Part shown: positions 2,434 to 34,954 of the stretch, piece after piece
Layout of the letters: each line of letters begins with the position of its first letter
Numbering within the stretch: position 1 is the first letter of the stretch
Virus record (IMG/VR): IMGVR_UViG_3300030329_001933
Coordinates: 1-63,953 of that record
DNA: 63,953 bases
Strand: one strand, 5' to 3'
From: a virus
Notes under the pieces: generated by a model
What the model was told of the DNA's origin: nothing
The model's input: only the letters and a program-made list of their open reading frames with translations
Databases searched by the model: none
Position numbers and translations under genes: made by a program

Positions 2434-3591
2434 ATGGCACGAAGAGTGAAACCTAAGATAAAGTATAAGAAAAATAAAAAAACCCCTAAAGCTTTTGTTG
2501 GAGCTACCATGGCAGCCTTAGGTGCAGCTAAAATGATTACTGGAGCTATACAAAAAAGAAGAGCTAAGAAAGCTGAAGCAGCTTTTGATAAAAGTAGGTT
2601 AGAAACTCAGGTTAGTAAAGCCACTAAAGAAATGGCTGACGAACCTATAGACCAAGGCTACATAGAGAACATACAACAACAACAAGCCTCTGATAGGGCC
2701 TCTGCTATGGGTGCTTTATCTAAAGACCCTAGAAATATATTACCAGGAGTAATGGGCTTAGAGGGTCAAAAGAGGAAGGAAGATATAGCTTTATTAAAAT
2801 TACAGCAAGACGCTAAAACTGAAGCTATGAGTAACCTAGCTAAAGAGCAGCAGGCTGTAGATAAAAGAAAGGCTGAGATTGCAGAACAAGAGCTTGCAGG
2901 TATTGTGGGTGAGAAAGCTGCAGGGCAACAAAACTTGTTTGGCGGTGCTGAAGATGTTGTTAGTGGATTTGGAGCTATGGCTAAAAAAGGTGCTAAGATA
3001 GATGCTGAAGATGGTGGAGTAACTCCAGGAGAGTTTAGCCACGATGAAAACCCTATTGATATGGTTCAAGATGGAGAGAAGATTGGTGAGGCTACAGGTG
3101 GTGAGCTAATCCTTCCTCCTGATGATGTTGAAGAAATTAGATCAGCTCTTAGTAGTGGAGATAAGAATATTGCTTTTCAACTTATGGAGGATTTAGTTGC
3201 CAAGTATGATAAGAACGTTATAGGTGACGATGAAGACCCTGAAGCTCAAGAAGGGGCTAAGGTTCAGGAACCTACTGTACCACCTTTAGATAGCGATAGA
3301 GCTAATGAGATTGTTAAGGTTATGAAGGAGAACGCTACGCAGGTTAGAAACGTTGGAGAACTTCCTTTTGATGAAGACCCTACAAACCCAGCAGGTTTAG
3401 TTAACTACATAGGAGGGAAACTTTCATTTGATATAGACTCAACTAACGTAGCTGAGATTGACTTTATCAAGAACTACAGAGAGCATTTAATTAAAGAAAA
3501 AGGTAGAGCTGACTCACCTGAAATGAAGCATGGAGGCTATCTAGCAAAGGTTAAAGCTAGAATAGGGTCGTACATGAAATCAAAATACTAA
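2434..3591 (+). CDS. Internal virion (cargo-like) protein, 385 aa
   Basis: The N-terminus is very basic (MARRVKPKIKYKKNKK), followed by an Ala/Gly hydrophobic stretch (about residues 22-38) and a long charged helical region. A central GEF-SHDENPID segment leads to TGGELILPPDDVEEI. The C-terminal half is acidic. This arrangement resembles a family of structural proteins in Bacteroidetes podoviruses found next to giant tail and polyvalent proteins. It is probably packaged in the head or tail and ejected. The next gene starts 3 bases after the stop, so the two are likely translationally linked. Family assignment is from recall of the GGE...P motif context; catalytic residues are not seen. Confidence 0.7.
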   Translation: MARRVKPKIKYKKNKKTPKAFVGATMAALGAAKMITGAIQKRRAKKAEAAFDKSRLETQVSKATKEMADEPIDQGYIENIQQQQASDRASAMGALSKDPRNILPGVMGLEGQKRKEDIALLKLQQDAKTEAMSNLAKEQQAVDKRKAEIAEQELAGIVGEKAAGQQNLFGGAEDVVSGFGAMAKKGAKIDAEDGGVTPGEFSHDENPIDMVQDGEKIGEATGGELILPPDDVEEIRSALSSGDKNIAFQLMEDLVAKYDKNVIGDDEDPEAQEGAKVQEPTVPPLDSDRANEIVKVMKENATQVRNVGELPFDEDPTNPAGLVNYIGGKLSFDIDSTNVAEIDFIKNYREHLIKEKGRADSPEMKHGGYLAKVKARIGSYMKSKY

Positions 3592-3594
3592 AAC

Positions 3595-5025
3595 ATGGCT
3601 GGAGAAGGTTTATTTTTCACAGGGCAGGTTCTTAAAAACAATCGTGATCTTTTAAAGGAAGAGAATGCTAGGCAAAAACTTGCCCTGCAAAGAGAGCAAC
3701 TTGAACTTCAAAAACAAGCTGCCGCAGACAAGAGAAGAGCTGATAGAGAGAAAGGGAAGAAGGATTTAGCTCAGACTTTTTCTATAGAAGATATTAATGC
3801 CGACTACGTTCCATTTATAAATAACTCTATATCAGACTATAAGGGTTTTGTCTCTGATAACTATCAAGCTATACAGGATGGTGATAGCGAAGTCCTTAGA
3901 CAGAAAAGAGAGATGGAGAGGGACCTTACAAACAATACAGCCCTTTTAAAGCAAAGATCTACAAGTCTTCAAAACTACAGAACAACAGTAGACGAAGGTG
4001 AGGATTTAATAAACTTTAATGTAGATGATGATGGTAATTACATGCACGAAAATTATCATCAACAGTTTTTAGATGGTCTATCCCAAGGGCTTGATATTTC
4101 AGAACTTAATAAGCAGTATAACATAGATTCAAAAATGACTGTTGAAGGCAAGTGGGAAGACCCTTCTATGCTTTTAATTAAAGGTGTCATAAATAAGCCT
4201 ACAGGTTTTTACGTTAACGAAAAAACAGGGGAAGAGTTTAATATAGTGTCTGGTAAACAAAAGGACGAATCTAGACAAGAAATTGCTAGAGGGTTAACTA
4301 TTAGTGATAACCTTAGTTGGGATAACCTAGACTACAGAAGAATATATAACAGGAAAAGAGTTAGAGTTTCTGACGGAACTACAGTTAATGCTCAAGAAGC
4401 TTTTTTCGCAGAGTCTTATCAGGGTGGTGGAAATACTAATCCATCTCCAGAACTACTTGCTAAGCTAGACCCGTCTAATGAAAATTTATTTGATAGAAAG
4501 GTTGCTGATGAGTACGCAAACTACTTGGCAGGTAAGATAACTGAAGAAGGATTTAAAAACGCTCCATCAGTTAGTAAAGGAATACCTTCTAAGGGTAAAG
4601 GAAAAGGTGATAAGTCAGTGGATACCTCTTTTTATTACGGTCAATCTAAGAACGTTTTACCATTTGGTGATGTCCAGGTTAAGAGTGATGAAGGGTTCTA
4701 TGACGAGTCCGCAACAGGTAAGGTTTCTATAGGTCCTGAAAGCTTACTTCCAGGTCAGGCTGGATTATCTGAGGAGTTTAATAAAGAGTTTCAAAGCTTA
4801 GTTGGTAGTGGAGATCAGCGTACAGTACCTGCTAATGTTATAGGTGTTTACGTAACCTCTAACAATGTCCCTGTTGCTAAAGTTCAATTGGAGGGAGGTA
4901 ACCAACAAGTCTTGGTTCCTTTATCTAATTTAAGTAACTTCGCAGAGAAGCTAAAGGGTAGAGCAGGAGAAATATACAGTATGTCTAAGCAATCTGCAGT
5001 AGCGATAGATACATCAAAATATTAA
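3595..5025 (+). CDS. Internal virion protein with N-terminal coiled coil, 476 aa
   Basis: Residues about 12-60 form a strongly charged Lys/Glu/Gln helix, a likely coiled coil. A mixed region with no recognised motif follows, including a Gly/Lys-rich linker near residue 335. It has no signal peptide or membrane segment. It lies between the 385-residue cargo-like protein and the giant polyvalent protein and ends 10 bases before the latter. This suggests it is co-produced with them and is part of the ejected protein set. The function is inferred from position only. Confidence 0.65.
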   Translation: MAGEGLFFTGQVLKNNRDLLKEENARQKLALQREQLELQKQAAADKRRADREKGKKDLAQTFSIEDINADYVPFINNSISDYKGFVSDNYQAIQDGDSEVLRQKREMERDLTNNTALLKQRSTSLQNYRTTVDEGEDLINFNVDDDGNYMHENYHQQFLDGLSQGLDISELNKQYNIDSKMTVEGKWEDPSMLLIKGVINKPTGFYVNEKTGEEFNIVSGKQKDESRQEIARGLTISDNLSWDNLDYRRIYNRKRVRVSDGTTVNAQEAFFAESYQGGGNTNPSPELLAKLDPSNENLFDRKVADEYANYLAGKITEEGFKNAPSVSKGIPSKGKGKGDKSVDTSFYYGQSKNVLPFGDVQVKSDEGFYDESATGKVSIGPESLLPGQAGLSEEFNKEFQSLVGSGDQRTVPANVIGVYVTSNNVPVAKVQLEGGNQQVLVPLSNLSNFAEKLKGRAGEIYSMSKQSAVAIDTSKY

Positions 5026-5035
5026 GAAACGAATA

Positions 5036-8000
5036 ATGAACGAAGAAGCATTAAAAGATGCCTACAGCTTGTTTACACAATCAGGCTACAGCGGCTCACA
5101 AGATGAGTTTTACACTTTATTATCTGACAACGCTGAAGCGTTTGCAGACTCTTATGCTTTATTTAAAGGATCTGGATATAAGGGGTCTGAAGATAATTAC
5201 AAAGAGTTATTAGGCTTAAAAAAAAAAGATTCTTCAGCATTACAAGATGCGGCTGCTCAGATGGCTTCAGGGGATACTCCATCAACATCGGATCTTTCTC
5301 AGTCTTCTTTGGAACAAGACGTTCAAGCTAGTTTAGAGGAAAGATTATCTGGGTTTAGAGACCTTCCTGAACAGGAGCAATTAAATGCTGTAAATAACGA
5401 AGCTAAAAAACCTTTCTACGAGGCTCAAGGTATTGACTACCAAGAGATGCTTAACTTTCAATCTGTACTTGACAATCAAAAGCAAGAAAAGCAGGAAGAA
5501 GAAGAGGTTAGCGAAGAGTCTAGCTTCCTATCAAATCTATACGACAAAATAACAAGTACCGAAGATTTAGAGCAGGATATGTTTACTACAGACGTAGACC
5601 TGGCTAATCAATATTTTGCTGACAACAGAGATAAAATGAGGTCAGCTAAAGCTCAATACTCTAGAGCTAGATTTGACGATATACTTAAAACGTCAAAGGA
5701 TAACCAAGAATTTGCTAAAAGAATAGAAGACGCAGACATTGACACCAATGATCTTGCAATGCCAGAACTAAATATTGATGGTCAATCTAAATCCTTTAAC
5801 GAGTGGTTAGACTATTGGATGGAGGGTGACAATGTTGAGGATCAGCAAAAAGCTATTAAAGAGCAGGAGGAGTATGATAACGCTATAAAAGAAGGTATGA
5901 GTGCCGAAGAGGCTTCTGAAAAGTTCCTCAAAACTCAGGTTCCTGATATATCTATTAATGTTCCCAAAGAGTCTGACCCCAATTACAAAGCGTTAAAGTA
6001 TGCTGACGATCTAATGAACAGACAATTAGGTTCTGGTAGTAGCAGAACCTTTGATGCTTTTGAAGGTCTTTTAGCTACTACTGTTGATTTAGGAGCAGGA
6101 TTATTAGAACAAGTTGAGAAAGTTGGGGCACTTTCTGCGTCTGCTCAGTCAGGTAGCACTATGCCTTGGGATTTGTATATGATGAAGGGTGGTCACTTTG
6201 CTAACAAGGTTAGGGATTACGCAAACGATATAAGAGAAAACACAAGAATACCTGAAGAGGGTTCTATATCTGAGGCTATATTAAATGGTAACGTTGAAGA
6301 TGCTGTGTACCAAACAGCAAGTGGCGTAGCTAATGCTATCCCTTTTACTGTTGCTGTGGCTTTAGCCGCACCTGTCGCAGGGCCTACTGGGGCTTTAGTT
6401 CTTGGTGGTGCGTCAGCAGCAGGTATGAAGTCTTTAGAGCTCAAAGAGAGGAGAAGAGTTGGTATAGAAGAGGGTACTAAAGATGCTGATATAAAGAATT
6501 GGCAAATACTTGTTAGTGAAACCGTTACAGGTGTAGCGGAAGGGTTTTTTGAGAGGTATACTCAAAGAATATTGCGAGCTGCTAAACTTGCAGGAGCCAA
6601 TAAAAATGTAGTATTTGAAAGTTACATAGAGGGTATAAAAAAGTCTATTAAACAAGAGGTTCCTAGTGAGGTGGCTACAGAGTTATCTACTTACTTTACA
6701 GATGTTGGGCTTGAGTTAGAAGAATTTGACTCAGGAGAGTTTGCAATTAGAGTAGTAGACACAAGTATTATATCATCCTTATTCGGTGGTAGTACTTATG
6801 TTTCAACCAGAGGTGCTACATCTATGGTTAATAAACTAAATATAATCAACGACAACACCTCTGTAATCTTTACTAACGAGAAAGGTGAGACAAAGGAAGT
6901 GTCTAGAGGTGAAGCTATAAACTTTGCTAAAGACCCAGAGATAGCTCAACAGATTAGAGATGGTAAGCTTAAGGTTGACTACTCTATGAATGACGCAGCT
7001 AAACAAGCTATAGAAGATTTAGTTTATGGATACACTGCCCCTGATGCTCAACAAGCTAGAGCTGAGATGTTCGAGAAGGAGAAGGTTGTATCTAATCTAT
7101 CTAGAAAAATTAATAAAGCTAAAGAAGAAGGTACTGAAATATCTAACGAGGATGTTTCTAACCTAGCTCAAGCTTTATCTGAGATGGAATCTGAAGGCAA
7201 GAAGTCTAAGTATAACGTTACTAAAAGCACTAAGGCTGCTAGAAGCGAGGCTAACAAAGTCCTTAAAGATAATAACATAGAGATAGTAGATGCTGTAAAC
7301 TCTCAAAATACATCTATATCTAACGTTACAGAAACTGTAGAGGCTACAAAGATAGACAATCAAAAGCAGTACGACTCTGTTAAGAAACAGTTAAAGGATG
7401 GTAAAGGAAAGCCAACTATAGTTCAGTCTCAAAATCAAAGTGGTGTTAGGATTGACGGAGAGGTGTCTCAAACTTCAGATATAACTCAAGGTGAGTTTAA
7501 AAATGCTTCTGTAGCTAAGAATGCTATGAAGGAGTTCGAGGCTAAGAGAGATGCTGCTAAGAGAGGGGAGATGATTGAAAGCGAATTGTTTCCTGCTAAC
7601 AATAAGTTGTTTACAAACACCAAGAAAGAAACCCTTGACGAAATACCTCAAGAGGTTATAGATAATAACGATTACCACATACTAACTTCAGAAAAAGAAG
7701 GTTTAACAGAGCAAGAAAGAGCCTCTAGAATGGAGGAGCTTAAATCTATGCTAGATGAGGCTGACGCAACTTATTATACCGTTCAGGGTGTTTATAACGG
7801 GGTTGCTGAAGAAAGCCTTGTGGTAACAGGAATAGATAACGCTACCGCTTTAAATATAGGTAATCAGTTCCAACAAGAGTCTATTTTCTCGTCTAAGGAT
7901 GGGTTAATGTTTGGTGATGGTAGTGTAGTTCCTTTAGATGGTGATGTATCAAAGGGTCCAGACGCTAGGAAAAGAGACGCTCTAACTATAATGAATGTTG

Positions 8001-11000
8001 GGGGTAGAAAATCCTCTATACATACAGGTCTTAACTGGGGTAATATGAGTTACGGTAAAAACTTTAACTCAGATAACATTCACAGGTTAGACGAGAGCGA
8101 TCCTAATTATGATAGTGAACTGTTCCAGGGATTAACTGACAGTAGAAAGAGAGCTTTAGGTTTTGCTTTTAAATTACTTAACTCTATTGGTGGCCTTAAC
8201 GTTACTATTGTTAGAAATAGTAAAGCTATGGAAGGTCAGCTTGAAGCTTTAGGTTACGACACAGCAAACAGAAACGCATCTTTCTTTAGGGGTGCTGACA
8301 AAACTATATACGTAAACCTTGAAACTGTTCGTGGCAATACTTTATTCCACGAGATAGTTCACCCAATGGTTGACTTTATTAAGAAGACTGATCCTGAGTT
8401 ATATAAGAGAATAGAGGGAGAGGTTTCTCAAGGTAAGGTTAAGAGAAGAGTGTTAAAGAATGGTCGTAAGGTAAAAGGATCTTACCTTCAGTGGGCTGAA
8501 GAAAACTACGCTGACTTATCTAAAGAAGGTCAAATAGAAGAGGCTTTTGCTGAGATGATGGGTGATGCTGCTTATGGTCACTTTAATAAGAGTCAATCTA
8601 CACTTAATAGAATTTTAGATATTGTTAGAGCTATGTTAGGTAAGCTTAACATAACTACTAATAAAGAAAACCCAGCAGCTATAAACCTAGATGAGATGTC
8701 TTTATCTGACATGAGAAAAAACTTAGCTGGTGCTTTAGTTGATGGTAGAAAGATTAACGTTGGGGGAATTGAATTTGAAGTTGGAGAGGTGAAGGTTGAT
8801 AAAGATAAGGTTAACAACTCAATTAGAACTCAGGTAGATAAATCAGAGCCTAACTCTGATCTTGGTGTTGTAAACGTAAACATACCAGACAACGTTCAAA
8901 CTCAAGAGATACGATTCCAAACTCCTGAATACTATCCAAACTTTGATATATCAAAAGTCAAAAGAGGTAGTATAAAAGAGTTTAATGGTCAGAAGGCTTT
9001 ACTTATGTTGACTGATAGATCGGCATCTGGTATGGTTGTATCTCCAACGGGTGTTAAGCATGAATTTGACGGAGGGGTGTTTTACCCTTACCAAGAAGAT
9101 ACAGGTGTTTGGGCATTCTCAGATAAGTCTGCAGCAACTAGAATGATTAACGCAGCAAAGGAGAGTGATGGTTTAGTATTCTTAACGGCTATGGCTCCAG
9201 GTTCTATTGATGGTAGCGTTAACATGTTTGATTACGTTATGAAAGAACTTGATCAAGCTATAAAAGATAAGAGAGCTACTAAGAAAGAGGTTCTAGACTT
9301 CCTTAATAAGAAGATGACTATAAAGTCTTTTGACTCTAAAGTTAAAGGTGAAGGGATAAAAACAGCTAAAGTTAAATCTGTAAAAGAGTTTAGTAATTTA
9401 GTTTTATCTATGCCTCAAGCTTTTGGTGTTAGGAAAGATATAATAAGGAAGTCTATCCAGAGTAAGATATTTGAGAAGTGGGGCGTACCTTCTATGCAGG
9501 AAATGTATGATGTTGTAAATCAAGATATTGTAAAAAACCTTAAGGGTAACCCTATAGTGTCTGCTATTAGGATAGATACAGAGGCTGGATATGTAGATTC
9601 TAGAACTGACGAAAGTATTAAAGATCACCCTACCTACCCATACGTTGTTAAAGGAGAGCCCTTAATGATATTTGACGAATCTATTGACGCTTCAGAAGTT
9701 TGGGATGAGCTCAACTTAGCTGATAAGTTTTTAATAGATTCTAAGACAGGAGAAAAACTAAGTGAAGGTACAACTCAAGCTAGAAGACAAAGAAAGATTG
9801 AGATGGCTAGACCTGTTGTTGAGATTAGAATGCAGGCTGCTGAAGTAGCAGAAGAATATGTAAATGACTTAGATCAGAAAATTAAATCTACGAGAAACTC
9901 TAAAGAATTACAAAGACTATTAGATATTAAATCTGGTTTAGCTTTTAGGTCTGGAGATTTAACAACTAAGGCTGAATATAAATTTAAAATGAGACCAGGC
10001 AGGAGCACTGGGCACTTTGGAACAGGTTTTTATTTTTTCAGCGACCTTAATAGAGCTAAGGCTTATGATGACAGAAGAGTTTCTGTTATTAACTTAAATA
10101 ATTATAATTTAGCTCCTGGTACTATTGAGCTGCACGATGCTCTTAAATTTATAAACAATACATCTTACAGCTATGACTATAATAAATACACTGTAGATAG
10201 ACAACACCTTGGTCGTATAGCTTCTATTGTAGGAGTTGAACTACCTATTGGTAAAGATTTAAATCCTTACAAAGAACTTTTTGCCCCTAAAGGTGCTAAA
10301 GCTTATGCTGAAAAGTATAATGCTTTAGTAGCAGAGTTTGGTGAGGATCTTGTTAATGAAAATTATTATAAATATATAGACTTTGAACAAAAAAGATATA
10401 GTAACGTTAATCAACTGGTTAACGATATTAACTCAAAGTTAAACGATTCAAATAATATTGATAGTCCTTCGACTCTTGTAATGAAGGCCTTAGGTTTTGA
10501 AGGTATAGATTCTAGGTACAATAAAGATACTGACAACTCAATCTATGGTACTGTAGTTTATGATATAAAATCTGATCAAATAGGTGGTATTAGAATGCAG
10601 GCTCCTCAAGTAGAAGAAGTGCAGTGGCAAAAATCTAAGATAGGTAGAGGTGATTTAGCTATCACTAATAGAAGAGAAGAGGTTAGAGAGGCTGCGCAGG
10701 ATTATTTCGATGGTAAGATAAACCAGGAGGAGTATCTGGAGATCGTTCAAGAGAATAGCCCTATTAAGCCTATAACCCAATTTATAGACCCTGCAAGCCT
10801 ACAAGATATTAAAACTGCTGTAGGATCGAAGATCGAAGGTAGATTAGACGTTCCTATAGAAGAGGGAACTAAGGTTGGTTTACGATTAGATATTCCTGCT
10901 TACACAAATAAAAATATATGGGCTATTACCGTACACGAAGATGGCAGAGGTAAAGCTATGTCTTATACAAATGTTGCTAGAATAAACAACGTTGAGTTTA

Positions 11001-14000
11001 TATCTAGTCCTAAAGTTGCTTTAGGTATAGCTAGAGGAAGATTAAGTAAGTCTACCATTGCTAGAATGCTAGGTAGCTGGAGTCCTATTGAGGGGGCTGA
11101 CGCTAAATCTAGAGGTGAGAACGCTAAACAGATTGTAGCTAATGTAATGAACGATCCTTCTTGGGTGCAAGTTGGTATGAATCCATTTAGACACTCTTAC
11201 TTTTACGATAGATTAGATGGTATGCCAGTTGTAAGTGCAGAGCAGGTTATTCAGATTGGTGGGTTAGTTTACGCTAAGAACGCTGAGAAGACTACTCCTT
11301 TTGATGAGAGATTTGAAGACGCAAGAACAGGATTAAGATTCCAAGCTCCTACATACGATATGGAGTACACACCTAACGCTTTAGTATCTTTAGCTATGTT
11401 ATCTGATAACAACAGACAACCAGAACAGTGGGTTAAGGAGATAGGTAAAGGACTTAAGGGTGCTTCAAGGGATGTTGACACCATGGGATTACTAGACCTC
11501 CTTAAAGCTTATAAAAAGGACGCTAAGGTTAAGAGTATCCCTAAAGAAATGGTAGAGAGAATTATCGCTACCAATATGGCTCAGATAGAGACTAACATCT
11601 TAGATAAATGGTTAGTCCAGTATCCTGGAGCTGCTCTTCCTGGAGGTAAAAACTACAGAGAGTTCCTTATAAATGACAAATCTCCTGAGGATATATTTAC
11701 TGCTGGTCATTATTTTGGATTACCCTACGCATCGAAAAACCTTATAGCTTCTGCTAGGGTAGATGATAGAGTTGGTCCTAATGGGGAGAAGATTCTATTT
11801 GTTCAAGAGATACAATCTGATTGGGTTCAAGGAACTAATAAAGGTGACTTCAAGACTAAGGATGAGATTGCACAATTAGAGCGTGAAAAAGATGATTTAA
11901 TCGGAAAAAACGATATTCTAAAAAACGAAATAAGGTTTATTACAAATAAGTATTATAGAGAGTTTTTTAAAAACTTACCTGATGGAAAAATAAAAAGTGC
12001 TTTTCAAGAGCTCTATGAAGAAAATAATAAAGAAGATTTAATTAGCAGAAAATTGGGCTCAAAAGCGTCAGAGATAGCACCTATTCTTGTATCTCTTAAA
12101 TCAGAGTACGATAAATTAGATAAAGAGCGAGATAGTAATATTGATAGATTTCAAGACATAAAAAGTAGTTTAAAGAGTCTTAAACCCTACCTCCCTTGGA
12201 ATCAAACAGACCTATGGGTTGGTTTAACTATTAGAAAGTTAATCAATCAAGCCTCTAAAGAGGGGTACGATCAGATAGCCTTTGTTAATGGAGAGCAATC
12301 TGATATTATTCAAGGACATAGTGATGGTAGAACAGCAGAGTTCTATAACAAGATCGTTCCTAAAAATATCAACAACGAACTTAAGAGGTTAGTTAAAGGG
12401 ATGAAGTATGGGGTTGAAAGTATAATAGATATTTCTGACTTCCAGTCACTTAAACCTGATGCCTTCTTAGAATCTAGAAGATATTCACATACCTTATTCT
12501 TATCTCCGTTAGGACCAACTACTGGAGATACTGACGTTCACACGTTTGATTTTGACGCTTTAAAACCTTACAAACCCAAGTTAAATGTTTTTAACAGCGA
12601 AGACGGAAATACATATATAAGAACTGAGTTTACAGATCCTAATACTGAAGAGTTATTTGAAAAAACTTACAATAAATTTGATGAGGGTGGAAAAGATATG
12701 TCTGACATGCATTTTTACAATTTGACAAGTGCTATTCTATTTAAGTCTATTAACGAAAGGTTTACTTTACCTAAAAAAGAATACCCTAACGCAGTAATAA
12801 ACCTAACCCCAGAGCTTAAAGCTGCCACTGATAAGGTTGGTCCACTTAGGTTTCAAGTAGCTGGAGAGAGAGCCTCTTTAAGTGAAAAGATACAGGATAA
12901 CTTGATTATTGCTAACGAGATGGAGGAGCTTAATCAAGATGATAAACTATTTATTAAAAGAGCTACAGGTTGGGAAAGAGGTGCAGATGGCAAGTGGAGA
13001 TACGAGCTAGAACCTATTAAATTTAGAGAGGACATAATATCTTTAAGTGATGGTAAGCCAGATTTTACAAAGTTTAAGCGAACAACTAAAGAACAAGAGG
13101 ATGATTGGCTTGGACCTTTCGAGGGTGATTACGTTGCAAAATTAAAAGATATAATTGACGCTAAAGACTTATTTGAAGCTTACGGAGAAAAGAAAAAGAA
13201 TCCTAACGAGAAGTCTTTTATTGGATTTTACAAAGCTGTACCTGACTTAAATGTTTTCCTTAGACCTGGCAGGTCAGAGGGTGGTTCTTATATGCCTTTA
13301 AATCAAGCAATCACAGTAGAATATACCAAGAATACTAGTAAGAAAGAAATTCTTGGAACTATAGCTCACGAAGTGCAACACCATATACAAAAGATAGAAG
13401 GTTTTAGTAAGGGTCAAACATTTACGAAACAATACTACAAAGGTAAGCCAACTAAATCTTACTTAGAGTATTTTAGAAGTGCAGGAGAGGTTGAGGCTAG
13501 AAACGTAGAGACTAGGCTATCTATGGATCCTGTTCGTAGAAGAAACACCTTACTATCTTTAACTGAAGATGTTGCAAGGGAGGATCAGATAAGACTTCAA
13601 GCCCCTCAAGAGGAAGGAGAGGCTAACGTGTACACTTCAGGTTTAGCTACTATAGCTTGGGATGTATCTAAGTTTGTTGTAGATAAAGATTATCAACTTG
13701 GTACCTACCTGTCTAACATAAAGAATAAAGAGCTTAGGTATGACGCTAGGATGTCTGACCTTATATTTAGATCTCATGGTGAACACACTAATCAGGAGAT
13801 AAAAGAAATTATGGTTAGAAGTAAGGGTGAAGTTAACGCTGAACTCTTAAAGACAAGTATGATCGTAGAAGAGGTTAAGGCAGCTAACAAAGAGGCTAAC
13901 TTATCTAGGGAAGAGGTTGATAGACTTCTACATAACCTTGAAGAGGTTAAGGCTATGGAAGATTCAGACCTTAAGGTTGCTCTAATAAAGATGAGAGAGC

Positions 14001-16309
14001 ATATTGATTCCCTAAGTAGAACCCTTATAAGAGAAGGGCTCGTTAATGGTAAAACTCAGTTTACTATAGACGAAAACCTTGGTGTTTACGTAAACAGATC
14101 GTACAAGCAATTTGAGGTTGAAGGATGGAAGCAGACTGATAACGATATTATTAGAAAAGCTAAGTCTTTCCTTTACGCAGAGATTAAAGCTCAAAACGAA
14201 AAAGATGTTGAAGCAGGTCGTAAAGAGCCTATGACTGACAAAGATATAACAGCTAAGGTTAATGCTGAGTATAAAAAACTTATATCTAAAGAAGGTTTCC
14301 GTTACGCTTCTGGTAAGTCAACTCAAAGCGATAACCTAACTATGGTTCAATCTATCTTCAAAAGAAGAAAGAATGTTCCTGTTGAAATAAGAGATCTTTG
14401 GGGAGAGATAGATAACCCTTACTACAACTACGTTACAAGCGTAAACCAAATATCTAGAACTATAGCTGCTCAAAGAATGTTTAGAGAGCTTAACTTTATT
14501 GGTGAAGGTAAGTTTATATCTAAGGACGCTACAGATTTTGCTGACAACGAGTTGTTAGGTGCTAAGTATGGCGATCTTGAAGGTATGTACGTAGATAACG
14601 AAATGTACGCAGTACTTAATAAGTCAGTTGAAAATCTAAACAACCCTGAGTGGTTGAACCTGTACTTAACAGCTGTACTCTTTAATAAGAAAATGAAGAC
14701 TGTATGGAATATAGGTACTCACGCTAAAAACATTATAGGTAACACCTCTTTTGCTACCATGAATGGTCACATAGGTTTTAATGGTGATATGTATAAAAAC
14801 ATTTCAACATCACTAAAAGCTTTTAAATCTATGAAGGAGGGTGAGTTTGCAGATCTTTACAGTGAACTTACTAGACTTGGTGTTGTATCTTCGTCTGCTT
14901 CTTTACAAGAGATTAGAGAGATAGCTAACGATATACAAATGTCTAAGTTCGATCTTACTGAGTATCTAGATGAGAATAGAGGTCCTATAAGTAAGAGAAT
15001 GGCTAAGACATCCAGGTTCTTCAAAGAGGGTGTAAAAGGCTTAGATAATATGTTAACAAAAGCCTACCAAGCTGAGGATGATATGTTTAAGATATTTGGA
15101 TTCTTATCTGAAAAGCAGAGGTATATTAAAGCTGGTATAGATCCTGTAACAGCTAAAGACATGGCTGCTAGAAACATAATAAACCTTTACCCTAACTACA
15201 ACGAGATACCAGGATTTATAAGAAAGCTAGGTAGATCTCCTGTAGTAGGATCATTCGTTGCTTTCCAGGCTGAAGCTGTTCGTAACACTAAGAACGCTGT
15301 TAAACTTGGATTTGAAGAGCTTGGTAGTAGTAACCCTAAAATAAGAAAGATAGGTGCTACTAGAGTCGCAGGTACTATATCTGTATTTGCCCTTATAGAG
15401 AGTCTTCAAATGGCTACCATACAAGCCCTTGGCGGGGCACTTGGTTTTACAGGTGGAGACGAAGAGGAGTTAGAGGATAGAGCTATTAGGCTTTTGCTCC
15501 CTGAATGGGACTCTACAGGTAAACTAGCGACAGTCGAAAGAGGCCGATTAGATAGTAGACAGGTAGAAGGTCAATCTGAACCTGATAAGTATTTTGACTA
15601 CGTAAATCTATCTAATACCTCTGGTGTTGGTTATATTAAAGATATTATGAGACTCGCTTTTACAGATATAGATTCTGAATTAGGGAAAGAAGAGTTTGAT
15701 GATACAGTAATGAATATACTAGAAGATGTGTACAAACCTTTCTTGGGAGAGGAGATGACTTTAATAGCGTTTAGAGAGGCTATTGATAATAGAGGTAAAA
15801 AGGTTTACAACCCTACGGACTCTTGGTACGAAAAGCTTGGTAAGATTATGTTATACGCAGGTAAGAAAATACAGCCTGGTATCACCAAAACAGCTTACAG
15901 AAACATAGAGTCTAGATGGGATTCAGACTCAGAGCTAGTACCTGAATACGAAACTTTAGCTGTCCTTGGTCTTAGAGTATCTAGGATAAACGTCAACAAA
16001 GGTTTAGCTATTAAGAGTAGGTTCCTTGTTAATGATATGAACGATATAGTGGGTAAGGCTACTATGAGAAACAAGATGGACATAATAAATGCTTACACTC
16101 AAAATAGTAAGTTCAATGGGTTTATAGACGAGATGGCTGATCTTTATTCTACAGCTAGACTTAACCAGGTGGCAGGTATAGATATAGAAAACATCTTAAG
16201 AAAGTCGGGTATTAGCGAGAAAATGTTAGATATTGTTAGAACTAGGTACTACAACAATTACTCAGAAGATGTAATTAATGTTGATGAAACCTACGGATTT
16301 GACAAATAA
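5036..16309 (+). CDS. Giant polyvalent protein, 3,757 aa, with two zincin motifs, ART-like and LPD-type domains
   Basis: This protein is probably injected with the DNA, acting on host targets and processing virion proteins. The N-terminus has two tandem repeats of the form YxLFxxSGY-GS (about residues 8-55). Hydrophobic Ala-rich segments lie near 430-470. A first metallopeptidase-like motif HEIVH is at 1105-1109, with an EEAFAEMM downstream. An ADP-ribosyltransferase-like block (MRPGRSTGHFGTGFYFFSD, about 1652) follows. Next is a block with EIQSDWVQG (about 2258), common in giant phage and plasmid proteins. A second zincin motif HEVQH is at 2778-2782 with GEVEARN after it, like the LPD23 type. 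A C-terminal helical region with NIGTHAKNIIGN (about 3224) is LPD38-like. Six copies of [IL]RxQ[ATV] separate blocks. The polyvalent-protein concept is established for phages and conjugative elements; activity here is inferred. Confidence 0.85.
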   Translation: MNEEALKDAYSLFTQSGYSGSQDEFYTLLSDNAEAFADSYALFKGSGYKGSEDNYKELLGLKKKDSSALQDAAAQMASGDTPSTSDLSQSSLEQDVQASLEERLSGFRDLPEQEQLNAVNNEAKKPFYEAQGIDYQEMLNFQSVLDNQKQEKQEEEEVSEESSFLSNLYDKITSTEDLEQDMFTTDVDLANQYFADNRDKMRSAKAQYSRARFDDILKTSKDNQEFAKRIEDADIDTNDLAMPELNIDGQSKSFNEWLDYWMEGDNVEDQQKAIKEQEEYDNAIKEGMSAEEASEKFLKTQVPDISINVPKESDPNYKALKYADDLMNRQLGSGSSRTFDAFEGLLATTVDLGAGLLEQVEKVGALSASAQSGSTMPWDLYMMKGGHFANKVRDYANDIRENTRIPEEGSISEAILNGNVEDAVYQTASGVANAIPFTVAVALAAPVAGPTGALVLGGASAAGMKSLELKERRRVGIEEGTKDADIKNWQILVSETVTGVAEGFFERYTQRILRAAKLAGANKNVVFESYIEGIKKSIKQEVPSEVATELSTYFTDVGLELEEFDSGEFAIRVVDTSIISSLFGGSTYVSTRGATSMVNKLNIINDNTSVIFTNEKGETKEVSRGEAINFAKDPEIAQQIRDGKLKVDYSMNDAAKQAIEDLVYGYTAPDAQQARAEMFEKEKVVSNLSRKINKAKEEGTEISNEDVSNLAQALSEMESEGKKSKYNVTKSTKAARSEANKVLKDNNIEIVDAVNSQNTSISNVTETVEATKIDNQKQYDSVKKQLKDGKGKPTIVQSQNQSGVRIDGEVSQTSDITQGEFKNASVAKNAMKEFEAKRDAAKRGEMIESELFPANNKLFTNTKKETLDEIPQEVIDNNDYHILTSEKEGLTEQERASRMEELKSMLDEADATYYTVQGVYNGVAEESLVVTGIDNATALNIGNQFQQESIFSSKDGLMFGDGSVVPLDGDVSKGPDARKRDALTIMNVGGRKSSIHTGLNWGNMSYGKNFNSDNIHRLDESDPNYDSELFQGLTDSRKRALGFAFKLLNSIGGLNVTIVRNSKAMEGQLEALGYDTANRNASFFRGADKTIYVNLETVRGNTLFHEIVHPMVDFIKKTDPELYKRIEGEVSQGKVKRRVLKNGRKVKGSYLQWAEENYADLSKEGQIEEAFAEMMGDAAYGHFNKSQSTLNRILDIVRAMLGKLNITTNKENPAAINLDEMSLSDMRKNLAGALVDGRKINVGGIEFEVGEVKVDKDKVNNSIRTQVDKSEPNSDLGVVNVNIPDNVQTQEIRFQTPEYYPNFDISKVKRGSIKEFNGQKALLMLTDRSASGMVVSPTGVKHEFDGGVFYPYQEDTGVWAFSDKSAATRMINAAKESDGLVFLTAMAPGSIDGSVNMFDYVMKELDQAIKDKRATKKEVLDFLNKKMTIKSFDSKVKGEGIKTAKVKSVKEFSNLVLSMPQAFGVRKDIIRKSIQSKIFEKWGVPSMQEMYDVVNQDIVKNLKGNPIVSAIRIDTEAGYVDSRTDESIKDHPTYPYVVKGEPLMIFDESIDASEVWDELNLADKFLIDSKTGEKLSEGTTQARRQRKIEMARPVVEIRMQAAEVAEEYVNDLDQKIKSTRNSKELQRLLDIKSGLAFRSGDLTTKAEYKFKMRPGRSTGHFGTGFYFFSDLNRAKAYDDRRVSVINLNNYNLAPGTIELHDALKFINNTSYSYDYNKYTVDRQHLGRIASIVGVELPIGKDLNPYKELFAPKGAKAYAEKYNALVAEFGEDLVNENYYKYIDFEQKRYSNVNQLVNDINSKLNDSNNIDSPSTLVMKALGFEGIDSRYNKDTDNSIYGTVVYDIKSDQIGGIRMQAPQVEEVQWQKSKIGRGDLAITNRREEVREAAQDYFDGKINQEEYLEIVQENSPIKPITQFIDPASLQDIKTAVGSKIEGRLDVPIEEGTKVGLRLDIPAYTNKNIWAITVHEDGRGKAMSYTNVARINNVEFISSPKVALGIARGRLSKSTIARMLGSWSPIEGADAKSRGENAKQIVANVMNDPSWVQVGMNPFRHSYFYDRLDGMPVVSAEQVIQIGGLVYAKNAEKTTPFDERFEDARTGLRFQAPTYDMEYTPNALVSLAMLSDNNRQPEQWVKEIGKGLKGASRDVDTMGLLDLLKAYKKDAKVKSIPKEMVERIIATNMAQIETNILDKWLVQYPGAALPGGKNYREFLINDKSPEDIFTAGHYFGLPYASKNLIASARVDDRVGPNGEKILFVQEIQSDWVQGTNKGDFKTKDEIAQLEREKDDLIGKNDILKNEIRFITNKYYREFFKNLPDGKIKSAFQELYEENNKEDLISRKLGSKASEIAPILVSLKSEYDKLDKERDSNIDRFQDIKSSLKSLKPYLPWNQTDLWVGLTIRKLINQASKEGYDQIAFVNGEQSDIIQGHSDGRTAEFYNKIVPKNINNELKRLVKGMKYGVESIIDISDFQSLKPDAFLESRRYSHTLFLSPLGPTTGDTDVHTFDFDALKPYKPKLNVFNSEDGNTYIRTEFTDPNTEELFEKTYNKFDEGGKDMSDMHFYNLTSAILFKSINERFTLPKKEYPNAVINLTPELKAATDKVGPLRFQVAGERASLSEKIQDNLIIANEMEELNQDDKLFIKRATGWERGADGKWRYELEPIKFREDIISLSDGKPDFTKFKRTTKEQEDDWLGPFEGDYVAKLKDIIDAKDLFEAYGEKKKNPNEKSFIGFYKAVPDLNVFLRPGRSEGGSYMPLNQAITVEYTKNTSKKEILGTIAHEVQHHIQKIEGFSKGQTFTKQYYKGKPTKSYLEYFRSAGEVEARNVETRLSMDPVRRRNTLLSLTEDVAREDQIRLQAPQEEGEANVYTSGLATIAWDVSKFVVDKDYQLGTYLSNIKNKELRYDARMSDLIFRSHGEHTNQEIKEIMVRSKGEVNAELLKTSMIVEEVKAANKEANLSREEVDRLLHNLEEVKAMEDSDLKVALIKMREHIDSLSRTLIREGLVNGKTQFTIDENLGVYVNRSYKQFEVEGWKQTDNDIIRKAKSFLYAEIKAQNEKDVEAGRKEPMTDKDITAKVNAEYKKLISKEGFRYASGKSTQSDNLTMVQSIFKRRKNVPVEIRDLWGEIDNPYYNYVTSVNQISRTIAAQRMFRELNFIGEGKFISKDATDFADNELLGAKYGDLEGMYVDNEMYAVLNKSVENLNNPEWLNLYLTAVLFNKKMKTVWNIGTHAKNIIGNTSFATMNGHIGFNGDMYKNISTSLKAFKSMKEGEFADLYSELTRLGVVSSSASLQEIREIANDIQMSKFDLTEYLDENRGPISKRMAKTSRFFKEGVKGLDNMLTKAYQAEDDMFKIFGFLSEKQRYIKAGIDPVTAKDMAARNIINLYPNYNEIPGFIRKLGRSPVVGSFVAFQAEAVRNTKNAVKLGFEELGSSNPKIRKIGATRVAGTISVFALIESLQMATIQALGGALGFTGGDEEELEDRAIRLLLPEWDSTGKLATVERGRLDSRQVEGQSEPDKYFDYVNLSNTSGVGYIKDIMRLAFTDIDSELGKEEFDDTVMNILEDVYKPFLGEEMTLIAFREAIDNRGKKVYNPTDSWYEKLGKIMLYAGKKIQPGITKTAYRNIESRWDSDSELVPEYETLAVLGLRVSRINVNKGLAIKSRFLVNDMNDIVGKATMRNKMDIINAYTQNSKFNGFIDEMADLYSTARLNQVAGIDIENILRKSGISEKMLDIVRTRYYNNYSEDVINVDETYGFDK

Positions 16310-19716: not shown

Positions 19717-19799
19717 AATAAACTCTTTAAAATTTCTTTAATAAAATAATATGTAAACCCAAGTCCCAGCACTATATAAAATATATCAAAAAGAATCAT
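19713..19799 (-). CDS. Possible 28-aa single-helix membrane peptide
   Basis: The frame MILFDIFYIVLGLGFTYYFI plus a short KEILKSLL tail fills the gap between dnaB and the DnaA-like gene. It starts inside the dnaB stop region and ends with an ATGA overlap to the next start. The exact fit and the clean membrane helix support a real peptide, possibly a membrane tether or toxin-like peptide. There is no homology support. Confidence 0.45.
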   Translation of the reverse strand: MILFDIFYIVLGLGFTYYFIKEILKSLL

Positions 19800-21108
19800 T
19801 TGGCTCTGCTGTTATATATTTCTCACTATAATCCTGGGGATCTACAAACTTAGTGTACTCTTTCTTAAATTTTAAAGGTAGGGTTCCAGTACCTATGTTT
19901 CTACCTTTAGCAAATATAAGGTCTACTAAGCCCTCTGTTGATTGACCACTATCATCAGTAGTAATCCCATAGTATTCAGGTCTGTACACTAACATAACAA
20001 CATCAGATGCCTGTTCGATCTCACCACTCTCACGAAGGTCGGAGAGGCTAGGTCTACACCCATCTCTACGCTCTACACCTCTACTAAGCTGAGATAGAGC
20101 AACTATTGTGATGTTAAGTTCTTTAGCTAAGTTCTTAAGTTCACGAGCCACCAGGGCTACCTCTTGCTCTCTAGAATGACCACTACCCTTAACAAGTTGT
20201 AGGTAGTCTACTAGAACAAACTTAACCTCTTTAGTTATTACGTACTGCCGTATCTTATTTAATAGGTATCTAAGGGATGAGTCTTTACACTCGTCTATAA
20301 ATAAGCTGACACCTTCTAGTTTGCCTATAGCTTTATCTACTCTAGAAAGTTCACTACTCTCTAGTGCCCCCTTCATTATATACCTATTATTAACCTCACT
20401 CTCTAAGGATACTAACCTCTGAAGAAGCTGTGTATCCCCCATCTCGTAAGAGAATACTGCGGCAGGTATCCCTACCTTAGCACAGTTATAGCAGAACGCT
20501 AAACCAAGTGATGTTTTTCCCATAGATGATGCCCCACCAATAACAATAAAGTCAGTCTCTTGCCAGCCGCCAGTAAACTTATCTACAGATTGAAAACCCG
20601 TAGGCAGACCCACCATATTTTCAGAAGACATCCTTCTCTGTATATCGTCATGTAATACCTTTAATTGTTTTTTAATATCAGGTATATCACTACCTCTAAT
20701 CTCAGAGATAGACTTCATCTGTTCCTCTACAAACTCTATAACGTCAAATAGATCACCTCCATTATCAATCTTCTTTGTAGTTAATTCTGCTAATTTTTTC
20801 AGCCTTATCTTCTTATCTTCCTGAGATAGATATAAAACTATGTTTTTGGTCAGGTAGGCATAGTGATCAGATGACATACACTCAGCCACCCTTAGATCGA
20901 CTAATGGATCTTTAATAGCAGAGGATATGACAATCATGTCAGCTTTATCTCCCTTGTCTAATTTACCTGATACAACCCTATATATTTTTCTATTTAAAGG
21001 ATCAGAAAATATATCCTCAGACATAAGGCTATGACAGTCATAGTAATCCCTTGGATGAGATATAATCTTACCGATAAGCCTCTTCTCCATCTCCATATTA
21101 TCTTTCAT
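19786..21108 (-). CDS. dnaB: Replicative DNA helicase (DnaB family), 440 aa
   Basis: The N-terminal helical domain (about 1-140) is followed by the RecA-like motor. Walker A is GGASSMGKTS (191-200), preceded by GLPTGFQSVDKFTGG. Walker B is KFVLVDYLQLV, and downstream are LSQLSRGVERR and the SDLRESGEIEQASD segment typical of DnaB. Length is normal for the family. It unwinds DNA at the phage fork as a hexamer. The gene directly follows the helicase loader gene (11-base overlap). No phage DNA polymerase or primase is seen, so it likely recruits host enzymes. Confidence 0.95.
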   Translation of the reverse strand: MKDNMEMEKRLIGKIISHPRDYYDCHSLMSEDIFSDPLNRKIYRVVSGKLDKGDKADMIVISSAIKDPLVDLRVAECMSSDHYAYLTKNIVLYLSQEDKKIRLKKLAELTTKKIDNGGDLFDVIEFVEEQMKSISEIRGSDIPDIKKQLKVLHDDIQRRMSSENMVGLPTGFQSVDKFTGGWQETDFIVIGGASSMGKTSLGLAFCYNCAKVGIPAAVFSYEMGDTQLLQRLVSLESEVNNRYIMKGALESSELSRVDKAIGKLEGVSLFIDECKDSSLRYLLNKIRQYVITKEVKFVLVDYLQLVKGSGHSREQEVALVARELKNLAKELNITIVALSQLSRGVERRDGCRPSLSDLRESGEIEQASDVVMLVYRPEYYGITTDDSGQSTEGLVDLIFAKGRNIGTGTLPLKFKKEYTKFVDPQDYSEKYITAEPNDSF

Positions 21109-21974: not shown

Positions 21975-22172
21975 TTAAGCTTTTGTAAAATAATTAACTA
22001 GTGCCTCCCTTTCTGTTACGTGAATTAACTTAGATATTTTTCTAACGTGCTTAATTCTAAACTCGTCAGGTTTATCTAAGTATTTATCTAGGGTAGGTCG
22101 GCTTAACCCTAATCTTTCAGCTAACCAAATTTTACTAATCTGATTCTCTGTTAGTTTTTCTTTTAGTGTCAT
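21975..22172 (-). CDS. XRE/Cro-like helix-turn-helix protein, 65 aa
   Basis: Residues about 10-35 (QISKIWLAERLGLSRPTLDK) form a classical helix-turn-helix with the LGLSRPTL turn, and the rest is helical as in Cro-type regulators. With 65 residues it is a single domain. It is a natural candidate to bind the 9-bp inverted repeat overlapping the promoter at 23541-23572, at the head of the same transcript, giving autoregulation. The start overlaps the exonuclease stop as ATGA. Confidence 0.8.
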   Translation of the reverse strand: MTLKEKLTENQISKIWLAERLGLSRPTLDKYLDKPDEFRIKHVRKISKLIHVTEREALVNYFTKA

Positions 22173-22936
22173 AAGGTTTCCATTATTAAGTGTTCGTCTA
22201 CGGACTCCTCATTATCTATAAAGAACCTCTTATAAAGCCCTAAAAGATATTTATACTCTTGTCTACCTCTCTCTATAAACTCATCGCCAGCATAGAAGAT
22301 CGACACGTTATAAGGTCTTTCTTTCTCTTGAGTTATAAATATAAACTCATCACAGCCAAAGCCATCCATATAGAAAGCTGATTGTCTGTCGTATCCATAC
22401 TTCTTGCAAGAGTTAGAGAAACCATAAAAGCTTCCATCTGCCGTAGTCTTAAGGTCTATAAGTACAGATCCGTTCCTATAATCAGCCTTACCTTTACAAA
22501 ATACGTCAGTATCCTCATCCTTCCAAGCGTTAGCTATTTCCCTTTTACCTTCCTTCTGTAGTAGGTCGTTAACCTCGTTATGAGAGAATAAAACATCTTG
22601 CATATACATAATCTTATCGTACTCTTTCTGTAAGATTATGGTAGTAGCATCAGGGTTGTTAGCCTTAAACTCCTTATAACCTTTAGTAGCCCTTGTAGAT
22701 GAGTCGAATACTAAAACCTTATTATTAAAATCGTTAGGTTCTAACATAGCTACATGATAAGCCCTTCCAAAGATCATGGGTAAGGTCTCTTTATTGAGTT
22801 CAGGATGATCCCTCATCATTCTGTAAGTTCTAACGTCCTGCTTTATTAACCCTAACTGCGAGTTTGTAACAAACTCGTAGTCAGAGTAATAAAAGGAGTC
22901 ATCGACCAACTTACTTATAAAGCTGTCTAAACTCAT
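22169..22936 (-). CDS. RecE/exonuclease VIII-like PD-(D/E)XK exonuclease, 255 aa
   Basis: The segment FGRAYHVAMLEP (57-67), then KGKADYRNGSVLIDLKT with D152, D161 and K163, followed by YDRQSAFYMDG, is the order of the RecE/exonuclease VIII type. It degrades one strand of a double-strand end to expose ssDNA for annealing. The gene shares its start base region with the end of the ERF annealase gene, so the two form a two-component recombination unit. Confidence 0.85.
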   Translation of the reverse strand: MSLDSFISKLVDDSFYYSDYEFVTNSQLGLIKQDVRTYRMMRDHPELNKETLPMIFGRAYHVAMLEPNDFNNKVLVFDSSTRATKGYKEFKANNPDATTIILQKEYDKIMYMQDVLFSHNEVNDLLQKEGKREIANAWKDEDTDVFCKGKADYRNGSVLIDLKTTADGSFYGFSNSCKKYGYDRQSAFYMDGFGCDEFIFITQEKERPYNVSIFYAGDEFIERGRQEYKYLLGLYKRFFIDNEESVDEHLIMETL

Positions 22937-23505
22937 TATACTAGGGTTTTAGATATTTTAAGGACTTTATTAAGGTTGTCTTGTTGTGTCTTAGTCATGG
23001 TGTATCCACCCATTTTTTGCTCAACAACACTACCCTTACCATCCTCAATAGCCTTCATCATACTCTTATATTGAGAGTCTGTTAGCTTAGGTTTAGATGT
23101 AGCTTTCTTAGTGTTAGGGCTAGTTCCCTTAACTGCCATATTGCCATCATCATCATCTCCAGTAACTACACCTACGAATGATGCTAAAGCATATCTTCTT
23201 GCATAGGATATTGCAGAGCCTACGCCATGCGCATCTTCTTTTGCAGGTATGTAGCATGTTGATGCTAAATATTCTCCACTAGAATGTGATAGGATTGTTG
23301 TTACTCCACCTACATCTGTAGGCATCTGAATGATAGCTAACTCGTTGTCTGCTAGTAATTTACGAACAGAGTCCCATACTGATCCAAGATCGGCATAGCT
23401 TGACTTGAAGAAAGGATTTTTTGAGTTTTCTTTAGCGGGTCTTAGTTGAGACTGCACTTTCGATAAGGCAAGGGTTAGCTTGCCAATTGTTTCTGACTTT
23501 TCCAT
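22936..23505 (-). CDS. erf: ERF-family single-strand annealing protein, 189 aa
   Basis: The sequence NPFFKSSYADLGSVWDSVRK followed by an IQMP strand, STCYIPAKEDAHGVGSAIS, YARRYALAS and the DDDDG segment is typical of the ERF recombination family. It anneals complementary ssDNA for recombination and genome circularisation. A helical C-terminal extension follows a Lys/Thr linker. It is the first gene after the 23541-23572 promoter and is coupled to the RecE-like exonuclease. Confidence 0.92.
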   Translation of the reverse strand: MEKSETIGKLTLALSKVQSQLRPAKENSKNPFFKSSYADLGSVWDSVRKLLADNELAIIQMPTDVGGVTTILSHSSGEYLASTCYIPAKEDAHGVGSAISYARRYALASFVGVVTGDDDDGNMAVKGTSPNTKKATSKPKLTDSQYKSMMKAIEDGKGSVVEQKMGGYTMTKTQQDNLNKVLKISKTLV

Positions 23506-34013: not shown

Positions 34014-34019
34014 TTAGAT

Positions 34020-34571
34020 TTATTTTCCTTTTTTAATAGCCTTTACTTTACCCCCATATTTGAGGACATTAGATTTTTGTCTCTTAACTTTTTCGTCTCC
34101 CTTTATTACTCTTGACTTTGTTCCGTCAGGATTTATAACTATATAAATCTCACCCTTCTTAGCAGCCTCTCTTGCAGCTTTATTCTTATTCCCTCTTATA
34201 GCAGCTTTTTCTAGCTCTTTCATTTTCTTTTGCTTAGCGGGGTCTTGCACTTCAACTTTAGCTACTTTGGTTTTTTTAACTACTCTGGGCTTTACTTGAG
34301 CTTCAGCAGCTTTTTTCACAGCAGCCTCTTTGTCTCTACTTTCTTGTTCTTTATCTCTTCTTTCAAAGTATTGTCTTTGCTCGTCAGATAAAAGAGCAGC
34401 CTTAACATCTCTTCGTTTAACCCTTCCTTTTCGGCCAGTTCCTTTAACACCTTCAAACCCACCTTCAGATATTAATTCTTTAACGTCACCAATCTCCCCT
34501 GATTTTTTAAGGGTTTTAAATCTAGCTTTTGCTCGACTCTTAGTAGTACTTCTTTTTTTAGCTTTTGCCAT
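34020..34571 (-). CDS. Lys-rich basic protein, 183 aa
   Basis: Extremely basic (MAKAKKRSTTKSRAKARFK), with alternating Lys/Ala/Glu helices and a strand IYIVINPDGTKSRVI near the C-terminus, ending YGGKVKAIKKGK. The C-terminal KYGGKVK tail occurs on several Bacteroidetes phage proteins. It may be packaged with or bind the genome. It follows the MarR-like gene by 1 base, so both share a transcript. Confidence 0.6.
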   Translation of the reverse strand: MAKAKKRSTTKSRAKARFKTLKKSGEIGDVKELISEGGFEGVKGTGRKGRVKRRDVKAALLSDEQRQYFERRDKEQESRDKEAAVKKAAEAQVKPRVVKKTKVAKVEVQDPAKQKKMKELEKAAIRGNKNKAAREAAKKGEIYIVINPDGTKSRVIKGDEKVKRQKSNVLKYGGKVKAIKKGK

Positions 34572-34572
34572 T

Positions 34573-34896: not shown

Positions 34897-34916
34897 TAGC
34901 TTAGATTAAATTAGGT

Positions 34917-34924
34917 CAAAGATA
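34917..34924 (-). promoter_or_regulatory. Leftward -7 box for MarR-like gene
   Basis: Minus-strand TATCTTTG in the 98-base divergent gap, about 20 bases before the ATG at 34896. The -33 element is weak. Confidence 0.45.
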
Positions 34925-34954
34925 ATAATTTTATTATAATTAAAAAATTATCCT

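What the first reader, a model, noticed from the sequence alone, without database searches (positions are those of the whole stretch)
5036..16309. A 3,757-residue injected effector candidate with two zincins and an ART-like domain
The chain combines two HExxH metallopeptidase-like sites (1105, 2778), an ART-like block, the EIQSDW block and C-terminal LPD38-like helices. Polyvalent proteins are known to carry such domains for host takeover. Here the gene follows directly after two cargo-like proteins, so it probably travels in the virion. It is the largest gene of the phage, about a sixth of the genome.
Basis: partly seen in the sequence, partly recalled or inferred. Interest (0 to 1): 0.7.

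Follow-up and report, generated by a model that had tools for sequence, protein, structure and literature searches.

The report
Phage cargo protein with swappable cassettes
A crAss-like phage encodes a 3,757-residue protein, probably packed in the virion and ejected into the host; its two ends are fixed, the enzyme-like modules between them are swapped among close relatives, and the same short motif (R-F/M-Q-A-P) sits at almost every join, which suggests a set of injected counter-defence tools that may be cut apart after delivery.

Summary
The 3,757-aa ORF is real and intact and lies at the slot where cultured crAss-like phages encode ejected virion proteins. Two zincin sites and the EIQSDW block are confirmed; the ART and LPD38 calls are not supported by Pfam; LPD23 is present. 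New findings: (1) It is a cassette array. In related giants an N-terminal and a C-terminal part are retained while modules between them are gained, lost and exchanged. One module is 87% identical to that of a phage whose core is only 37% identical; TerL is 88-95% identical across these phages. (2) Nearly every junction carries [IL]-R-[FM]-Q-[A/V]-P (62 R[FMYL]Q between the ends versus 6.3 expected), at domain boundaries, with left and right halves freely recombined. (3) The retained N-terminal core holds a domain with the fold and catalytic residues of phage SAM lyase (Pfam reaches it only as sub-threshold DUF3293), followed by an LF/PPEP-type zincin with an almost invariant active site. Best model: a virion-delivered polyvalent protein whose core disables SAM-dependent defences and whose zincin may cut the chain at the R-x-Q seams to free swappable effectors. 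Cleavage and delivery are inferred. New variant of the polyvalent-protein kind.

The parts
5036..16309 (+). giant polyvalent cargo gene, 3,757 aa
   Evidence: ORF; same genomic slot filled by giant genes in MW202828, elemoF, Panino and by ejected proteins in phi14:2
5036..7627 (+). N-terminal part (aa 1-864); begins with two ~38-aa repeats (aa 1-88)
   Evidence: aa 1-88 shared with the giant of MW202828; kept, at 26-69% identity, in 13 of 13 relatives
7646..8035 (+). SAM-lyase-like domain (aa 871-1000) with G918-x-Y920, E925-E926, Q947-E948
   Evidence: AF2 model; T3 SAM lyase 8bb1 Z 12.6, 124 aligned, 2.8 A, Foldseek E 7.3e-4; profile alignment pairs the catalytic residues with T3 SAMase
8066..8599 (+). 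zincin 1 (aa 1011-1188), HEIVH at aa 1105-1109 and EEAFAEMM at 1168-1175
   Evidence: invariant in alignment A1; LF / PPEP-1-like fold, Z 5-6 only
8909..8923 (+). seam 1, IRFQT (aa 1292-1296)
8924..9823 (+). module B (aa 1297-1596), unknown function; related m2 replaces it in other phages
   Evidence: module clustering
9824..9838 (+). seam 2, IRMQA (aa 1597-1601)
   Evidence: in a stretch of pLDDT below 50
9839..10588 (+). module C (aa 1602-1851), ART-looking by eye, unconfirmed
   Evidence: alignment A4; no Pfam ART match
10589..10603 (+). seam 3, IRMQA (aa 1852-1856)
10604..11332 (+). module D (aa 1857-2099); 87-93% identical in phages whose cores are 37-73% identical; also in MW202701 and Roseobacter phage CRP-9
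11333..11347 (+). seam 4, LRFQA (aa 2100-2104)
11348..12844 (+). module E (aa 2105-2603) with EIQSDW (11807-11824) and an almost invariant tail INLTPELKAATDKVGPLRF
   Evidence: alignment A3
12845..12859 (+). seam 5, LRFQV (aa 2604-2608)
12860..13588 (+). module F (aa 2609-2851): LPD23 plus zincin 2 (HEVQH at 13367-13381)
   Evidence: Pfam LPD23; 80 viral loci with relatives listed; catalytic residues conserved
13589..13603 (+). seam 6, IRLQA (aa 2852-2856)
13604..16306 (+). fixed C-terminal module G (aa 2857-3757), mainly helical by sequence; homologous to virion proteins of Cellulophaga phages
2434..3591 (+). cargo-like gene 1
   Evidence: weak similarity to a Panino protein annotated as virion structural
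3595..5025 (+). cargo-like gene 2, found in all 13 relatives at 27-34% identity

Best explanation
It is a virion-packaged, ejected polyvalent protein built as a cassette array. The N-terminal part and the C-terminal module G are retained, and plausibly serve packaging or ejection. The retained core carries a SAM-lyase-like domain that would lower host SAM, and so blunt restriction-modification, BREX or SAM-AMP signalling at entry, and an LF/PPEP-type zincin. The middle carries two to six interchangeable effector modules joined at an R-[FM]-Q|A-P seam. Relatives swap modules by recombination at the seams. The embedded zincin most likely cuts at or near the seams after ejection (or in the capsid) and releases the modules. 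Shown by sequence: array, seams, swapping, SAM-lyase residues and predicted fold, intact zincins. Inferred: packaging and ejection of this protein, SAM lyase activity, cleavage.
For: Slot and synteny with ejected proteins (PMC10172136). MS-verified virion relatives of modules G and F. Cassette architectures A-B-G, A-B-E-G, A-m2-C-D-E-G, A-B-C-D-E-F-G and others. Seam statistics: strict motif 6 observed in the window protein, mean 0.032 and maximum 2 in 5,000 shuffles; 62 versus 6.3 across 27 giants, only 13 in 55,710 aa of the retained ends. Left and right halves of seams recombine freely. Module D 87% identical while core 37% and G 35% in L067. SAM-lyase fold and residues (PMC7877911, PMC12255297). 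Zincin 1 almost invariant in all giants. Autoprocessing of polyvalent proteins by such zincins was already proposed, with P1 DdrB processing as precedent (PMC5512222).
Against: No peptide or N-terminus data for cleavage. N4 vRNAP has a zincin of this class yet is packaged uncut (PMC5512222). Two relatives (L055, L074) have no R-x-Q before module G. AP codons at seams are biased (27/27 CCT against 66% background), so part of the conservation may be a DNA recombination seam. The zincin fold match is weak (Z 5-6). Most other giants carrying module F lack seams. The catalytic Glu of the SAM-lyase-like domain is missing in three distant cores.
Confidence: 0.55

Rival explanations
1. The seam is only a recombination joint or linker. 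Modules are exchanged by homologous or microhomology recombination at a short conserved stretch; the chain stays in one piece and acts as a multi-domain effector.
For: A and P codons at seams are nearly fixed (GCT/GCC CCT); seam halves track their neighbouring modules; N4 vRNAP is packaged uncut (PMC5512222).
Against: I, R, F and Q codons vary at the seams. Different residues with the same character appear in unrelated giants (RFS in L177 and L224, KFQ in L172), where module F is bounded by such motifs. The shared DNA is only about 6-9 nt.
Confidence: 0.3
2. The motif is the last strand or tail of each domain fold and not a separate signal.
For: In module E the tail INLTPELKAATDKVGPLRF is more conserved than the preceding region; in module F relatives the tail TEDVAR.xQ..RF[SQ] recurs.
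Against: Modules with no detectable similarity to each other (B, C, D, E, F) end in the same R-x-Q, and the following A-P belongs to the next module. Five of six seams were modelled; those at 1597, 1852, 2100 and 2604 lie in segments of pLDDT below 50, and the one at 1292 near 67, though model 2 is poor overall.
Confidence: 0.2
3. The protein is a virion RNA polymerase or another transcription protein like the giant proteins in this slot of other crAss-like phages.
For: Same genomic slot as phi14:2 g066-g068.
Against: No RNAP DFDxD motif in the protein or elsewhere in the window, only an unrelated DEDGD at 40914; no family match to RNAP; different domains recognised.
Confidence: 0.03

Closest known systems
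Polyvalent proteins (Iyer et al. 2017, PMC5512222)
   Same: giant multidomain chain next to virion genes; zincin MPTases; LPD23; mosaic effector domains; in relatives ART-PolyVal and methyltransferase modules in the same slot
   Different: one lineage with retained ends, a repeated R-[FM]-Q-A-P seam at nearly every module junction, and a SAM-lyase-like core; none of these came up in my term searches of that paper (not a full read)
Phage SAM lyases (T3 SAMase, Svi3-3; PMC7877911)
   Same: predicted PII/ferredoxin-like fold (Z 12.6) and matching G-x-Y, Glu and Gln-acid residues
   Different: domain of a giant, probably virion-delivered protein rather than a small early-expressed enzyme
N4-type virion RNAP and P1 DdrB/DarB
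   Same: large ejected proteins with embedded zincin (N4 vRNAP, DdrB) or antirestriction role (Dar proteins)
   Different: no RNAP, ParB or helicase found in the window protein; variable middle cassettes
PhicrAss001 cargo proteins and crAss-like RNAP proteins (gp45-gp50, PMC10172136)
   Same: position after the muzzle gene
   Different: no RNAP found; polyvalent effector content instead

Membership tests
Polyvalent proteins | several biochemically unrelated domains in one chain | tested here: met
   SAM-lyase-like, zincin 1, LPD23/zincin 2 and other modules
Polyvalent proteins | zincin-like MPTase with HExxH and a third Glu ligand | tested here: met
   sequence conservation; the third ligand is inferred from the conserved Glu
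Polyvalent proteins | encoded beside late virion genes | tested here: met
Polyvalent proteins | packaged and injected | not testable with these tools
   only relatives of single modules are MS-verified virion proteins
Phage SAM lyase | PII-like SAM lyase fold | tested here: met
   Z 12.6 to 8bb1, rank 1, rank 2 also a SAM lyase, next unrelated rows Z about 6
Phage SAM lyase | catalytic Glu (E69 Svi3-3, E68 T3) and active-site Gln | tested here: met
   E926 and Q947 by profile alignment; alignment P-value only 0.015 for one pair, so residue mapping is provisional
Phage SAM lyase | SAM breakdown and trimer | not testable with these tools
   needs protein
ART-PolyVal (PF18760) | profile match above cut-off in the window protein | tested here: not met
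   modules in the same region of L061 and L069 do match
ADP-ribosyltransferase fold | ART fold of module C | tested here: inconclusive
   model pLDDT mostly below 50 over the key part; no PDB sequence match
LPD38 (PF18857) | profile match in the C-terminal region | tested here: not met
   hmmscan (search had no positive control)
LPD23 (PF18838) | profile match above cut-off | tested here: met
   30.3-35 bits, cut-off 27
crAss-like phages | crAss muzzle, TerL and portal families | tested here: met
   crAss_MUZ E 1.7e-14; phrog_6681 and phrog_6547; formal order membership not tested

The most novel reading that the evidence does not exclude
Phage polyprotein: R-[FM]-Q|A-P is a processing signal cut by the embedded zincin, and it lets any module be plugged in between fixed delivery ends, so that close relatives carry different injected counter-defence sets; RFS and KFQ seams in unrelated giants would be the same device.
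Probability: 0.4. Interest if true: 0.88.

Novelty: new variant of a known kind. Interest (0 to 1): 0.7.

Why it matters
How giant ejected phage proteins act after passing a narrow tail is open. A repeated seam gives a directly testable processing site, and cassette swapping among phages with 88-95% identical terminases points to a hot spot of counter-defence. A SAM-lyase-like domain delivered with the virion would act before any phage gene is expressed, against SAM-dependent defences. The seams also give exact boundaries for expressing single modules of unknown function.

Tried and rejected
PLxRFG of Pseudomonas phage proteins as the same motif: H66 has a single PLSRFG inside its C-terminal part, so the link was dropped. 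AF2 of aa 1597-2606 was poor (pLDDT 53) and its structural matches were coiled-coil noise. No PDB sequence relatives for zincin 1 or module C. The genome-contig scan with modules E-F found nothing. First module clustering by single linkage merged everything and was redone with mutual coverage. One R-F-Q inside module E (aa 2371, DRFQD) is judged chance. Kinase-like (m20) and ParB-like (m24) readings of relatives' modules are by eye only; Pfam gave nothing. Alignment A8 used a wrong coordinate for one row and was not used. NCBIfam gave nothing for the protein. Papers found no earlier description of the seam; the library is open-access only.

Full report
What is there. The ORF at 5036-16309 (+) encodes 3,757 aa without interruption and starts 10 nt after the preceding gene. 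The window is a virus record with a 99-bp end repeat, so it reads as a closed genome of 63,854 bp; one long muzzle gene (about 3,540 aa) wraps across the ends. The muzzle matches crAss_MUZ (E 1.7e-14); TerL and portal match phrog_6681 and phrog_6547. Gene order is TerL-portal-...-muzzle-two cargo-like genes-giant. The same order, with a giant of 1,829-3,859 aa in last place, is found in MW202828, Flavobacterium phage elemoF and Maribacter phage Panino. In Cellulophaga phi14:2 the slot holds g068, g067 and the RNAP g066, all virion proteins by MS/MS. In PhicrAss001 the genes after the muzzle are ejected cargo (PMC10172136). No RNAP motif was found here.

Domains. Two zincin sites are real. HEIVH (1105) with EEAFAEMM is nearly invariant in relatives (one contig-end copy has YEIIH), and HEVQH (2778) is conserved in about 70 relatives from many viruses. 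LPD23 precedes the second site. ART-PolyVal and LPD38 are not found in the window, although two relatives carry ART-PolyVal modules in the same region. A structure model of aa 860-1606 (22 sequences, mean pLDDT 73.9) shows that aa 871-1000, which Pfam reaches only as sub-threshold DUF3293, has the phage SAM lyase fold: T3 SAM lyase 8bb1 is first by Foldseek (E 7.3e-4) and by VIA-align (Z 12.6, 124 residues, 2.8 A), and the second row is also a SAM lyase. A profile alignment to T3 SAMase pairs Y920 with T3 Y57, E925-E926 with T3 E67-E68, and Q947-E948 with T3 Q-D. Glu68 of T3 and Glu69 of Svi3-3 are the critical residues (PMC7877911); the Gln is shared by SAM and SAM-AMP lyases (PMC12255297). 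The Glu is present in 14 of 17 cores and the Gln in all. The pairing rests on a weak single-pair alignment that agrees with the fold match; activity is not shown. The zincin part resembles anthrax lethal factor and PPEP-1 (Z 5-6), in line with the published link of such zincins to LF (PMC5512222).

The seams. [IVL]R[FML]Q[AVT] occurs six times, at 1292, 1597, 1852, 2100, 2604 and 2852. Five thousand shuffles give a mean of 0.032 and a maximum of 2. The looser R[FMYL]Q is found 4 times in 13,140 aa of other ORFs of the window. The places were not chosen from domain data, yet similarity to unrelated phages stops at them: MW202701 matches 1882-2094 and H66 matches 2640-2846.

The cassettes. Scans of viral contigs gave relatives covering both ends. 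Splitting 27 giants at R-x-Q and clustering the pieces gives arrays such as A-B-G, A-B-E-G, A-m5-G, A-m5-C-G, A-m2-E-G, A-m2-C-D-E-G, A-m2-D-m21-E-G, A-B-D-m19-m20-m4-G and, in the window, A-B-C-D-E-F-G. Between the ends R[FMYL]Q occurs 62 times against 6.3 expected; in the ends themselves 13 times in 55,710 aa. The residues before the motif follow the upstream module (VVDI, VGPL, RTGL, SEKI) and those after it follow the downstream module (APQE, APTY, APEV, APQV); the combinations are free. Some modules moved recently: module D is 87% identical in L067, whose core is 37% and G 35% identical to the window. The phages themselves are close: TerL 88-95%, DnaB 73-93%, MCP 64-86%, against cargo-2 27-34% and giant N-terminus 26-69%. 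L061 has TerL 94% and MCP 86% but core 40%. Modules in relatives include ART-PolyVal (m8, m22), a methyltransferase (m12, Methyltransf_23) and a second DUF3293 (m19).

Seam outside this lineage. Among giants of unrelated viruses that carry module F, L177 has seven VRFS/IRFS/LRFS-type motifs, two of which bracket module F (about 1982 and 2313); L224 and L172 show RFS or KFQ at module F's end. Most such giants do not, so the device is not universal. elemoF gp18, from a cultured phage, has HEIFH and seam-like TSRFQ and SVRMQ.

Mechanism. Shown by sequence: cassette array, seams, exchange, intact zincins, SAM-lyase-like fold (predicted) and residues. Inferred: packaging and ejection, supported by the slot and by MS-verified virion relatives of modules G (phi18:3 gp123) and F (H66 gp60); SAM breakdown; cleavage at the seams by zincin 1, the only enzyme besides the SAM-lyase-like domain that is retained in all arrays. 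The main alternative is that the seam is a recombination joint or linker: A and P codons are biased (27/27 CCT), while R, F and Q codons vary. Both can be true.

Relation to known systems. The protein is a polyvalent protein in the sense of Iyer et al. 2017, who proposed zincin autoprocessing; in my term searches of that paper and of the library I found no repeated seam and no SAM-lyase core. I file it as a new variant.

Noticed in passing
window 35791-38277 +: 828-aa phage protein ending in a type A T9SS sorting domain (TIGR04183 E 3e-12, PF18962 E 8e-13): a phage protein apparently exported through the host's type IX secretion system.
   Followed up: partly
window 55636-63953 and 1-2395: Muzzle gene wraps the genome ends and is about 3,540 aa, much longer than the 1,224-position Pfam model, with long Ala/Glu/Asp-rich coiled-coil-like insertions.
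   Followed up: no
window, whole genome: No RNAP motif found although the phage is crAss-like; DnaB helicase (19786-21108 -), PDDEXK DUF3799 (22169-22936 -) and ERF (22936-23505 -) are present.
   Followed up: partly
window 2434-5025 and relatives: Cargo-like protein 2 is only 27-34% identical among phages whose TerL is 88-95% identical; ejected cargo evolves far faster than the rest.
   Followed up: partly
L067 giant, aa 1909-2102 (L067:7961-8542 +): A second DUF3293/SAM-lyase-like copy occurs as a cassette, in a protein whose core copy has lost the catalytic Glu.
   Followed up: partly
G008 and G009 (records of L056, L073): MCP match is split in two pieces in these records (14340-15747 and 33798-35086): insertion, frameshift or assembly error.
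   Followed up: no
L177:1-12933 +: Unrelated 4,311-aa giant with seven VRFS/IRFS/LRFS-type motifs, two of them bracketing its LPD23-zincin module.
   Followed up: partly
window 5036-5299: Two tandem ~38-aa repeats (YSLFxxSGYxGSxDxFxxLL) at the N-terminus, shared with MW202828; possible packaging signal.
   Followed up: no
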